This document shows, piece after piece, positions 56,865 through 60,789 of a DNA stretch of 64,000 nucleotides. This DNA comes from an uncultured Nitrospira sp. (GTDB taxonomy: Bacteria > Nitrospirota > Nitrospiria > Nitrospirales > Nitrospiraceae). The translations under genes were made by a program, and so were the position numbers. Where the stretch lies: positions 1 to 64,000 of the forward strand of contig CABVRX010000017.1 of NCBI GenBank assembly GCA_902500825.1, given 5' to 3'. The notes beneath the pieces were generated by a model. The model had not been told where the DNA came from. It was given only the letters and a program-made list of their open reading frames with translations, and did no database searches. How positions within the stretch are numbered: the first letter of the stretch is position 1; every line of letters starts with the position of its first letter.

Positions 56865-57968
56865 TCAATCCAGGCTGATGATGTAGTGCGTGCTTCGACC
56901 GCCGCCGGTGGGAATGAATACTCCTTTGTCCGCCAAATCTTGGAGGTCGCGCGTGGCGGTGGCTTTTGACGCACCGGTGATGGACATATATTTCTTGGCA
57001 CTCATACCACCTGCGAAGCCGTTCGGACCTTCATCCAGCATGCGGCGAAGAATTTGCAGCTGACGCTCGTTGAGCTGGTCCCTGAAACGGTCGAACAGCC
57101 TAGTTTTCTTGAGAGTGAAATCGATCTGTTCCTCGGCCTGGATCTGCGCCTCAATAGCCATATTAATAAACCAGGTCACCCAGGATGTGATCTCATTGGA
57201 CTGTTGAGCCTCTTTCAGAGCATCGTAATATTCCTTCCTTCGAGCTTCGATTACTCTCGATAGGCTCAACAGGATGGGCCGTCTCAGTCCCTGCGAGAGT
57301 GCCTTTTCGGACAAGGCTCGTCCGATGCGGCCATTGCCGTCTTCAAAAGGGTGGATCGACTCAAAATACAGATGAACGATGGCCGAGCGCACTGCGGCTT
57401 TCCGAATCTCGTGCTTCCCACCAGGGGCAGTGTCGTTGAACCACTGAATGTATCGCTGCATTTCTTCAGACACTTGAGAAGACGGTGGCGCCTCGAAATG
57501 TACTCGTTCATGCCCGATCGGCCCGGAGACTACTTGCATCGGTTCGATGTGTGTCCTCCAACAACCTGCAGCAATATGTCGATGGCCCTGCATGATCATC
57601 CGATGCCAGCCAAACAGCATTTCCTCGGAGAGCGATGCCGCAAAACTATTGCGGACATCGATCATCAGAGCAGCAGCGCCTGCAGCCCGCTTGTCTCCGC
57701 CCGACGTTTCGGAGGCTAGGCCGAGATTGTGTCGGATGGACGACATGACATCCTTCCGACTCAACAGCTCCCCTTCGATTGCAAAGGTCTTGATCGCTTC
57801 GATGGCCATCACTTCGATAGAGGTTTCCATCTGATCGCCCGCCGTCAGCCCTTTTAGGAGTCCACCAGCTCGACCGGTTTTTTCAGCAAAAGTGAACAAG
57901 GAGTCCTCGATCTCAGAGAGGTCATAACGGAAGTTGGGCCAATCAGGTTGCTGCCAGTTATAAAGCAT
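56865..57968 (-). CDS. Fic family protein (AMPylase) with N-terminal inhibitory helix and C-terminal winged HTH
   Basis: 367 residues. The Fic catalytic motif HPFEDGNGR is intact at 206-214, so transfer of AMP to a hydroxyl side chain is expected. An inhibitory motif TFAIEG (61-66, S/T-x-x-x-E-G) lies before the Fic core, the class II arrangement. The flap region is about 142-165. Residues about 300-367 form a winged-helix DNA-binding domain (LNERQLQILRRM; ASKATATRDLQDLADKGVF). No partner antitoxin gene is adjacent, consistent with built-in inhibition. Operators overlap its promoter. Confidence 0.92.
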   Translation of the reverse strand: MLYNWQQPDWPNFRYDLSEIEDSLFTFAEKTGRAGGLLKGLTAGDQMETSIEVMAIEAIKTFAIEGELLSRKDVMSSIRHNLGLASETSGGDKRAAGAAALMIDVRNSFAASLSEEMLFGWHRMIMQGHRHIAAGCWRTHIEPMQVVSGPIGHERVHFEAPPSSQVSEEMQRYIQWFNDTAPGGKHEIRKAAVRSAIVHLYFESIHPFEDGNGRIGRALSEKALSQGLRRPILLSLSRVIEARRKEYYDALKEAQQSNEITSWVTWFINMAIEAQIQAEEQIDFTLKKTRLFDRFRDQLNERQLQILRRMLDEGPNGFAGGMSAKKYMSITGASKATATRDLQDLADKGVFIPTGGGRSTHYIISLD

Positions 57969-58040
57969 GAGCCGATAGTATACATATTCGGCTCAATTAT
58001 CAATAAATTATGAGCCGAATGTATTGAGCAATCGGCTCAT
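57967..58040 (-). promoter_or_regulatory. fic promoter with two inverted-repeat operators
   Basis: Two inverted repeats share the arms TGAGCCGA / TCGGCTCA: one at 57968-57975 and 57988-57995, the other at 58011-58018 and 58032-58039, with spacers of 12 and 13. On the minus strand a TATACT -10 (57982-57977) lies inside the first repeat, with TATTGA or TTGATA as -35 between the repeats. The -10 is only 8 bases from the fic ATG, so the transcript is probably leaderless. The wHTH of Fic is an obvious candidate to bind here. Confidence 0.75.
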
Positions 58041-58123: not shown

Positions 58124-58981
58124 ATGCCATCGGCGAGCGAACTGATCCAGTCCTGCACCACGGTGTTCACCTTGCCGGAGATCTATCTCCGCGTGCGAGA
58201 GGTGGTGGATGACCCCGATTCGACCATGGACGATCTCGCCGATGTCCTGAAGCTGGATCCGGCCATCTCGGCCAGGCTGCTCCGCATCGTCAATAGCCCC
58301 CTGTATGGGTTCCCCAAGCAGGTCGATACCGTCTCACGAGCCGTCAACATCGTGGGGATGCAAGCCATCAACGATCTCGTCACCGCAACGACTGTCGGAC
58401 GGACCTTTTCCGGGATACCGATTCAACTCATGGATGTTCCGATGTTCTGGCGCAAGAGCGTGCTGTGTGCATTACTAGCAGGGAAGATCGCCAAATCCTG
58501 CGGTATTGAGGACAGCGAGCGTTTCTTCATCGAGGGTCTGCTGCGCGACATCGGCCATCTTGTCCTCTACCAGACCATCCCACAGCGCGCCCAGTCCGCC
58601 CTTATCGAAGCAGGGTACCTCGAAGCTTCTCTGGCCGAAGTGGAGCAGTCCAACATCGGGTGCGACTTCGCGGAAGTGGGGGCCGAACTCATTCGGTCCT
58701 GGGGTATGCCTGTGCAGATTGAACAGGCCATTCGCTGTCAGCTGAGTCCAAACGATGCCGGTGAATTCATCATCCATGCGTCCATCGTGCATCTGGCCGG
58801 GGTCGTGGCCGACTACGAAGAACTCGAGTCGAATCGGCGCCCAGCGACCTTGCCGTTCAACCCTCATGCCGTCGCCGCCACACGGTTTGTGCCGGCCACC
58901 CTTCCGACACTGCTCACGGATGCCCGGGCCGAACTGCAAGATACCCTGGCGGTCATTAATCCCCACGCCATGGCCGCGTAG
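58124..58981 (+). CDS. HDOD domain protein
   Basis: 285 residues, soluble. The HDOD domain covers about residues 10-205, with LRIVNSPLYGFPKQVDTVSRA and LVLYQTIPQRA typical of the family, and the degenerate HD replaced as usual in HDOD proteins (GLLRDIGHLVLY retained). HDOD proteins act in signalling, often with two-component or cyclic-di-GMP systems. AAAGGA precedes the ATG. It is divergent from fic, 156 bases away, and convergent with another HDOD gene. Confidence 0.88.
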   Translation: MPSASELIQSCTTVFTLPEIYLRVREVVDDPDSTMDDLADVLKLDPAISARLLRIVNSPLYGFPKQVDTVSRAVNIVGMQAINDLVTATTVGRTFSGIPIQLMDVPMFWRKSVLCALLAGKIAKSCGIEDSERFFIEGLLRDIGHLVLYQTIPQRAQSALIEAGYLEASLAEVEQSNIGCDFAEVGAELIRSWGMPVQIEQAIRCQLSPNDAGEFIIHASIVHLAGVVADYEELESNRRPATLPFNPHAVAATRFVPATLPTLLTDARAELQDTLAVINPHAMAA

Positions 58982-59087: not shown

Positions 59088-60659
59088 TTACAGTATGCCG
59101 GCCAATCGATTCAGGCCCAACGTTGTCTGGGCAAAGAACAGCTGCAAGACTTGGTAGTCTTGGGGATGCATCGGTTGGTTGCTCGTTGCCCGATCGCAGT
59201 AGATGAGCCCAATCGGTTTTGCTCCAACACGCAACGGCGCCACAATCGCTGATGTCGGTTTCCAGATCTCAAAAAAGTCCTGCTTGAGAGTTCCGACCAT
59301 CTGATCTGAAAAGTTGGGAACAACGAGTGGATCGACTCGCTTGAGAACCGTGAGAAAAAACTGGCACTCCCGACTGAGCGAACCTGAGAGAGATCGGAGG
59401 TAGAGTGCCGGAGGGTTCACACCAAGCACCAGTCTTCCGACAAGCAGATCACTATCGGTTGGATTCAGAAGCGCCAAACCTACACGGCCAAATCCGGCAT
59501 CCCGGTGGAGGGATTGCACAAATGTCCCGAGGAGGCCGTTGAGATCTTTCGCAGCTTGTAGTGAGTCTTGAAAGGCTTGGAGTGTTTCAAGCGGCTTGGC
59601 CAGAATGGGAGCAACCGATTGGTCTCGCGGTGGGAACACCGCCTGTTCCTTGCCAACCGTCGGTTTGATGGAGGGCGGGTGCGGGATCGATTCGGTCGCA
59701 TTCTGCTCGTGTGATGGAGCCATGGATTCATCGGAGGAGTCAATTGCTAACCCCATGGAGCGGATGAGTTGGCGCCCCCGATCCATGGCCCGAATCATCA
59801 AATCCGCGAACAGCCCCGAAGAGAGTCCGCTTCCGAGCTGGAGAGTTTTTTGGGCTCCCTCAATAGCGGTCCGCGGAGCATGGCCGATCAACATCTCGAC
59901 CAGCCGGATGGAGCCGACAACGATACCTCGGTAGGTTTGGAGCCCACTTTGCCAATGCTCCATCGGCGATTCTTCTGAATGCCGAAAGAGATCGATCAGG
60001 TCATCCGGTAGCTTCCACATGTGGGCCAACGCGTGGGCTAAGGTCAGCCGTGGTACACCGATGAGGTGTGTCTCGTGAAGCACACATTCCGCCGGTTGGT
60101 TGGTTTTTTTGGAAATGGCCTGGAGAGCGAGAAAGAGGTCCGGGTCTTGGTAGGCAATGGCCAAATCTCCGATCGAGTACAGGAGGGCGCCGGTAAACAA
60201 CTGTCCGGGCTGTGGGTATCCGATAGCCATTCCCAGTTCGCAGGCATAAGTCGCTGAGAGAAGGGACTTAGCGATCAAGGTTCGGAACTCGTGTTGGCGA
60301 ACCGGCCAATGCTGCAGTTGTTCGACAAGATGGGCCGCAGCCACGAGGGATCGAACAGTGTCGAGCCCGAGCCAACTGACGGCATGGGGGACCGACACGA
60401 TCGTTTGCTGCGGGCTGTAGGCGATGCTGTTTGCCACCTGCAACACTTTGCATGTCAGCCCATGGTCTCGGCTGATCACCCGGGCAAGACTCGCGGCGTT
60501 GGATTGAGGCCCCATGTGATTCAGAATCTGCTGACAGGTTGACTGCAAGATCGGAAGACAGCGGCTAGATTCGTCGACGAGAGGGCTGAGTCGTTGATGG
60601 AGGCGAGAGCGGACTGAGTCGATGAAGGCCGATTCCGTGGCCGCATTTGGCGAGGTCAT
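59088..60659 (-). CDS. HDOD protein with C-terminal GAF-like sensor
   Basis: 523 residues from ATG 60659, which has CCAGGAAC upstream; a TTG eight codons earlier is in frame. The HDOD domain (about 40-235) has LQVANSIAYSPQQTIVSVPH and GALLYSIGDLAIAYQDPD. A Pro/Ser-rich linker (about 310-350) leads to a C-terminal GAF-like domain (about 370-523; FVQSLHRDAGFGRVGLALLN and VGAKPIGLIYCDRA). A signalling protein; ligand and partners are unknown. Confidence 0.85.
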   Translation of the reverse strand: MTSPNAATESAFIDSVRSRLHQRLSPLVDESSRCLPILQSTCQQILNHMGPQSNAASLARVISRDHGLTCKVLQVANSIAYSPQQTIVSVPHAVSWLGLDTVRSLVAAAHLVEQLQHWPVRQHEFRTLIAKSLLSATYACELGMAIGYPQPGQLFTGALLYSIGDLAIAYQDPDLFLALQAISKKTNQPAECVLHETHLIGVPRLTLAHALAHMWKLPDDLIDLFRHSEESPMEHWQSGLQTYRGIVVGSIRLVEMLIGHAPRTAIEGAQKTLQLGSGLSSGLFADLMIRAMDRGRQLIRSMGLAIDSSDESMAPSHEQNATESIPHPPSIKPTVGKEQAVFPPRDQSVAPILAKPLETLQAFQDSLQAAKDLNGLLGTFVQSLHRDAGFGRVGLALLNPTDSDLLVGRLVLGVNPPALYLRSLSGSLSRECQFFLTVLKRVDPLVVPNFSDQMVGTLKQDFFEIWKPTSAIVAPLRVGAKPIGLIYCDRATSNQPMHPQDYQVLQLFFAQTTLGLNRLAGIL

Positions 60660-60789
60660 ATGGGGTTCCTGGTTGATCGGCAAAAGCTCTATCGGTCAGA
60701 CTCTTATTTAGCTTAAGGGCACACAATTGCGGGAGAACACGTGCAATCGTGCGTCAAACTATCCTAAGTTCCTGCCGAATTCTTGCAAG

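What the first reader, a model, noticed from the sequence alone, without database searches (positions are those of the whole stretch)
57967..58040. Fic gene controlled by paired operators and probably translated from a leaderless mRNA
Two copies of TGAGCCGA-N12/13-TCGGCTCA flank the minus-strand promoter; one overlaps the TATACT -10 and even the start codon. The -10 lies 8 bases from the ATG, which leaves no room for a leader or Shine-Dalgarno. Fic's own C-terminal winged helix is a good candidate repressor, giving a self-contained module: AMPylase, internal inhibitor and autorepressor in one protein.
Basis: partly seen in the sequence, partly recalled or inferred. Interest (0 to 1): 0.6.

Follow-up and report, generated by a model that had tools for sequence, protein, structure and literature searches.

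The report
Self-repressing Fic enzyme with paired operators
A bacterial Fic enzyme gene carries two copies of a DNA switch in its own promoter, and comparison with about 170 relatives shows the switch changes in step with the enzyme's own DNA-binding helix, so the enzyme very probably turns its own gene down and is read from an mRNA with almost no leader.

Summary
TGAGCCGA-N12-TCGGCTCA (57968-57995) and the N13 copy (58011-58039) lie in the fic promoter and nowhere else in the genome.

Of 110 relatives chosen by protein similarity, 79 carry a 28-30 bp dyad upstream (shuffled 0.3%), including 17/17 at 60% identity or more. A fic-blind scan for the operator in public genomes landed beside a DUF4172-Fic gene in 80 of 119 loci, across several phyla. 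Half-site sequence changes between protein clades while dyad length (29 bp) and pair spacing (34/44/54 bp centre to centre) stay fixed.

Lys335, first residue of the wHTH recognition helix, goes with TGAGCCGA in 84 of 84 rows and with other operators in 2 of 81. It is the best predictor among all 366 positions, although few changes are phylogenetically independent.

Twenty-six close relatives put TATAAT (mean 5.15/6 matches) exactly 6 nt before the ATG, with no Shine-Dalgarno, so leaderless geometry is conserved in this clade but not family-wide.

Precedents exist: autorepressing Fic CccR, DNA-binding CbFic2, leaderless autorepressor AcuR. New are the family-wide operator system and a candidate recognition code. 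Binding and the 5' end are not shown.

The parts
56865..57968 (-). fic gene, 367 aa: DUF4172 + Fic domain + C-terminal winged helix-turn-helix
   Evidence: ORF; Pfam DUF4172 4.6e-23, Fic 2e-17, DIP2311-like_C 7.5e-7; AlphaFold mean pLDDT 92.7, best PDB fold match 8CIL
57968..57995 (.). downstream operator TGAGCCGA-N12-TCGGCTCA, covers the -10 and the A of the ATG
58011..58039 (.). upstream operator TGAGCCGA-N13-TCGGCTCA, about 44 bp centre to centre from the first
57998..58003 (-). candidate -35 TTGATA, between the operators
57975..57980 (-). candidate -10 TACTAT, 6 nt before the ATG, aligned with TATAAT of 26 relatives (alternative TATACT 57977-57982, 8 nt before the ATG)
57966..57968 (-). 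ATG start codon; predicted +1 at or within 2 nt of its A (leaderless)
   Evidence: inferred, 5' end not mapped
57771..57788 (-). inhibitory helix motif TFAIEG (residues 61-66, class II Fic)
   Evidence: sequence; E65 and E67 invariant and G66 nearly invariant in 21 relatives
57318..57353 (-). Fic catalytic motif HPFEDGNGRIGR (residues 206-217)
   Evidence: H206 ... R217 invariant
56877..57068 (-). winged helix-turn-helix, residues 301-364
   Evidence: DSSP of the model: H301-311, H324-331, H335-347, wing E351-354/E361-364
56928..56966 (-). recognition helix 335-347 (KATATRDLQDLAD); residues 335, 336 and 339 track the half-site

Best explanation
fic encodes a class II Fic AMPylase of the DUF4172 (CbFic2-like) group whose C-terminal winged helix binds the two 28-29 bp dyads in its own promoter. 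A dimer reads the two half-sites of one dyad, whose centres are about 20 bp (two turns) apart; a second dimer binds the other dyad about 44 bp away on a similar face of the DNA. Occupancy of the downstream dyad covers the -10 and the transcription start and blocks RNA polymerase, so the gene is negatively autoregulated. Transcription starts at, or within two bases of, the A of the ATG, so the mRNA has essentially no leader and is probably translated weakly. Shown by sequence: operators, promoter geometry, domain content, co-variation, co-travel. Inferred: binding, cooperativity, repression, exact 5' end, AMPylase activity.
For: Exact, locally unique operators. Upstream 28-30 bp TG-anchored dyads in 79/110 protein-selected relatives against 0.3% shuffled; 17/17 at 60% identity or more, 29/30 at 43-60%. 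A fic-blind scan of genome contigs with the operator gave 119 loci; 80 have a DUF4172-fic directly downstream, and in Nitrospirota most of the rest are decayed fic remnants. Half-site classes follow the recognition helix: TGAGCCGA with K335, TGAGTTATAG with R335, TGATGCGA with SMPTAQRD, TGCGG(A/T/C)GA with D336. K335 x TGAGCCGA: 84/0/2/79, MCC 0.976 against 0.678 for the next column, still best after clustering at 70, 60 and 50% identity. Base 3 = C with D336 in 43 rows; no row has base 3 = A with D336. The model places 335 at the N-terminus of the recognition helix. Neighbour genes differ between loci. Two paralogues in one genome carry different operators in 3 of 3 cases. Leaderless: TATAAT mean 5.15/6 at -12 against background 1.96 in 26 relatives, 22/26 TAnnnT, 16/26 extended -10, none of 49 large window ORFs has 5/6 there; a separate subclade has TTGACC-17-CATAAT-CACCGC-ATG. 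Precedents: CccR autorepression with footprint and operator mutants (PMC9755527); CbFic2 DNA binding (PMC10628234); AcuR leaderless autorepressor with mapped 5' end (PMC3017554).
Against: No binding or 5'-end data for any member of this clade. Phylogenetically independent changes are few: 3 concordant, 0 discordant, 1 not informative; the sign test cannot reach significance. Part of the K335 signal could be shared descent. The window's own -10 (TACTAT/TATACT) is weaker than its relatives' TATAAT. Only 33/63 relatives at 30-43% identity have a clean dyad under the strict criterion. The one footprinted Fic operator (CccR, 10-bp arms, N26) has a different spacing.
Confidence: 0.85

Rival explanations
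1. The operators are bound by another, unlinked or neighbouring, repressor and Fic is only its target.
For: No binding data; many toxin-like genes are repressed in trans.
Against: No regulator gene is conserved next to fic. Half-sites co-vary with Fic's own recognition helix better than with any other position in the protein. No other near-exact site in the genome.
Confidence: 0.08
2. Autorepression is right but the mRNA is not leaderless: a promoter between the operators gives a leader of about 20 nt.
For: GATAAT at about 58001-57996 could serve as a -10. Bacteroidota relatives show their TAnnTTTG element near -34, and classes B, C and A-far have Shine-Dalgarno leaders.
Against: In 26 close relatives the only strongly conserved -10 is at -12 (5.15/6), often extended (16/26), and no Shine-Dalgarno fits. 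The inter-operator spacer has no shared -10 in them. The scan finds only TTGATA-17-TACTAT here.
Confidence: 0.2
3. The inverted repeats act as RNA hairpins or are ends of a mobile element.
For: GC-rich arms could pair; fic moves between loci.
Against: Under a leaderless start they are not transcribed. Constant 29-bp length, constant position on the promoter and co-variation with the wHTH fit DNA operators; the remnant loci show decay of fic, not a shared element boundary.
Confidence: 0.03
4. Fic binds the operators as an activator or as a sensor-dependent switch rather than a simple repressor.
For: Two sites; CbFic2 activity changes on DNA binding (PMC10628234).
Against: The downstream site covers the -10 and start codon, a blocking position; CccR represses (PMC9755527).
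Confidence: 0.07

Closest known systems
CccR of Yersinia pseudotuberculosis (PMC9755527)
   Same: Class II Fic AMPylase with C-terminal HTH that represses its own gene through inverted repeats near -35 and -10.
   Different: T6SS effector; arms AGATAATCAT-N26-ATGATAATCT; leaderless mRNA not described; the paper describes one case, not a family.
CbFic2 of Coxiella burnetii (PMC10628234, PDB 8CIL)
   Same: Same architecture DUF4172-Fic-wHTH; best sequence (2.5e-65) and fold (TM 0.86-0.89) match; binds DNA.
   Different: Tested with random DNA only, no specific operator or autoregulation described; studied as a host-directed effector.
AcuR of Rhodobacter sphaeroides (PMC3017554)
   Same: Leaderless mRNA starting exactly at the ATG, operator of 8-bp inverted repeats over the promoter, autorepression.
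   Different: TetR-family repressor with acrylate ligand, single operator, no enzyme in the same protein.
SoFic anti-phage system (PADLOC SoFic; PMC12249575)
   Same: Single-gene Fic AMPylase; PADLOC SoFic model hits at 3.3e-45.
   Different: Far below NCBIfam's SoFic equivalog cut-off (61 of 550 bits); E. coli Sofic has a downstream antitoxin AS1, whereas no small gene next to the window's fic is shared with its relatives.
Phage lambda cI and Tn1721 tetR
   Same: Repressor genes with leaderless mRNA (cited in PMC3017554).
   Different: Not enzymes.

Membership tests
DUF4172 class II Fic adenylyltransferases (CbFic2-like) | HxFx(D/E)GNGRxxR motif | tested here: met
   HPFEDGNGRIGR 206-217, invariant positions
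DUF4172 class II Fic adenylyltransferases (CbFic2-like) | N-terminal inhibitory helix (S/T)xxxE(G/N) | tested here: met
   TFAIEG 61-66
DUF4172 class II Fic adenylyltransferases (CbFic2-like) | DUF4172 domain and C-terminal wHTH | tested here: met
   Pfam PF13776 4.6e-23, PF22168 7.5e-7; model and 8CIL match
DUF4172 class II Fic adenylyltransferases (CbFic2-like) | AMPylation activity | not testable with these tools
   biochemistry needed
Autorepressing Fic (CccR type) | Inverted repeats over its own -35/-10 | tested here: met
Autorepressing Fic (CccR type) | Protein binds its operator and represses | not testable with these tools
   co-variation only
Autorepressing Fic (CccR type) | 10-bp arms separated by 26 bp | tested here: not met
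   dyads of 28-30 bp, arm gap 12-13
Autorepressing Fic (CccR type) | Secretion by T6SS | not tested
   -
SoFic anti-phage system | Curated equivalog score | tested here: not met
   61 bits against cut-off 550; PADLOC model hit 3.3e-45
Leaderless mRNA | -10 about 6-7 nt upstream of the ATG, no Shine-Dalgarno | tested here: met
Leaderless mRNA | 5' end of the mRNA at the ATG | not testable with these tools
   needs 5' RACE or dRNA-seq

The most novel reading that the evidence does not exclude
The DUF4172-Fic family is a self-contained regulatory and enzymatic module in which the operator pair is also an enzymatic switch: titration onto its own operators holds the protein as a DNA-bound dimer with its AMPylase off (as CbFic2 is proposed to switch to deAMPylation when dimeric on DNA), so the promoter DNA acts as the antitoxin, and specificity residues 335/336/339 rewire operators so that paralogues stay insulated.
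Probability: 0.15. Interest if true: 0.75.

Novelty: new variant of a known kind. Interest (0 to 1): 0.55.

Why it matters
Autoregulation by a Fic enzyme's own HTH has been shown for one protein (CccR); CbFic2 was tested only on random DNA. Here a specific operator, a constant 29-bp dyad, helically quantised pairs and a candidate recognition code (K335 with AGCC, D336 with C at base 3) are found across a family in several phyla, so autorepression of the whole family becomes directly testable with swap mutants. It also adds a conserved clade of probable leaderless enzyme-repressor genes in Nitrospirota.

Tried and rejected
Phage records hold no relative at E 1e-20, though IMG/VR viral contigs do. 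A regulon in the same genome: near-matches are near background. A linked antitoxin or regulator: shared neighbours come only from a shared insertion site in 10 loci, none in the window. A formal independent-contrast test of co-variation: too few independent changes for significance. The CccR promoter was not fetched for comparison. K335 statistics on protein-selected rows alone are confounded by clade, so the combined set, with operator-selected distant loci, was used; selection on the operator cannot force K335. The first adjacency count for the blind scan missed sites matched on the minus strand and was redone.

Full report
What is there. On the minus strand a 367-aa gene (57968 to 56865) encodes DUF4172, a Fic domain with HPFEDGNGRIGR, an N-terminal inhibitory helix TFAIEG and a C-terminal winged helix. 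An AlphaFold model has mean pLDDT 92.7 and a recognition helix at 335-347; the best PDB match by fold and sequence is CbFic2, 8CIL. Its promoter holds TGAGCCGA-N12-TCGGCTCA (57968-57995) and the N13 version (58011-58039), exact, not expected by chance and unique in the genome. The downstream dyad covers the -10 and ends on the A of the ATG.

Who else has it. Protein-selected relatives were drawn from Nitrospirota, Bacteroidota, plasmids and viral contigs. Of 110 unique rows, 79 have a 28-30 bp TG-anchored dyad upstream; shuffles give 0.3%. It is 17/17 at 60% identity or more, 29/30 at 43-60% and 33/63 at 30-43%. Length 29 dominates. In 80 the next gene is a DUF4172-fic; a few others are truncated by the locus end or show decayed fic starts. 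In Nitrospirota the operator without an intact fic mostly marks fic pseudogenes. Neighbour genes differ from locus to locus.

Operator and helix change together. Four main half-site classes exist: A TGAGCCGA, B TGAGTTATAG and relatives, C TGATGCGAATA, D TGCGG(A/T/C)GAA. On a tree of residues 1-300, which leaves the wHTH out, they are clustered. Class A recurs in two clades about 35% identical, both with SKATATR. L260 and L261, nested in class A, changed to TGAGGCGA and to R335. Across all rows K335 and TGAGCC(G/A)A agree in 84 + 79 of 165; no other residue in 366 columns comes near (MCC 0.976 against 0.678), and this survives clustering. D336 goes with C at base 3 in 43 rows and never with A. 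Three genomes with two paralogues have two different operators. Caveat: independent changes are few (3 concordant, 0 discordant; D336 only 1), so descent and function are not formally separated.

Pairs are spaced by helical turns. Centre-to-centre distances cluster at 34 bp (class A far, 28 rows), 44-45 bp (class A near, 45 rows; class B, 8) and 54-55 bp (classes C and D). Half-site centres within a dyad are about 20 bp apart, about 68 A, close to the 70 A between DNA-binding helices reported for the CccR dimer (PMC9755527). Side-by-side cooperative dimers are an inference.

Leaderless geometry. In 26 close relatives TATAAT matches 5.15 of 6 at -12 to -7 (mean over offsets 1.96), 22 have TAnnnT and 16 the extended TG; no Shine-Dalgarno is present. 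None of 49 large ORFs in the window has a 5/6 match at that position. The same layout appears separately in a class D subclade, with TTGACC-17-CATAAT-CACCGC-ATG. Other clades differ: classes B, C and A-far have Shine-Dalgarno sequences, and Bacteroidota class A has a TAnnTTTG element near -34. So leaderless is a trait of this clade, not of the family. The window's own -10 is weaker than its relatives', so this step is less sure here (about 0.75).

Known ground. CccR, a Fic protein with an HTH, represses its own promoter, with a footprint and operator mutants (PMC9755527). CbFic2 binds DNA but was tested on random sequences (PMC10628234). AcuR is a leaderless autorepressor with an operator over its promoter (PMC3017554). 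The finding is therefore a new variant of a known kind: the mechanism has precedents; the family-wide operator code and paired geometry were not described in the papers found.

Noticed in passing
L042, L043, L044, L039, L046, L037: Decayed fic genes in Nitrospirota keep the operator and the wHTH-coding 3' end while the middle is lost; L042 and L044 are the same HDOD locus as the window.
   Followed up: partly
L196-L206 upstream regions: Class D viral-contig relatives carry a near-consensus sigma-70 promoter (TTGACC-17-CATAAT) overlapped by the dyad, and a further half-site after the ATG.
   Followed up: partly
Bacteroidota class A loci (L102, L106, L130, L159): The Bacteroidota-type TAnnTTTG element sits at the start of the downstream operator, so promoter type changed while operators stayed.
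   Followed up: partly
PMC9755527 operator, no window coordinates: CccR's N26 repeat arms may point outward like the inner arms of a tandem pair here (36 bp against about 34.5 expected for 54.5-bp pairs); its footprint may be part of such a pair.
   Followed up: no
L058, L081, L152: Paired operators without a recognisable fic gene nearby, probably fic losses or another target.
   Followed up: no
58124-58981 and 59088-60683: Two HDOD-domain genes side by side; the first is divergent from fic and shares its 155-bp intergenic region, so it could also feel the upstream operator.
   Followed up: no
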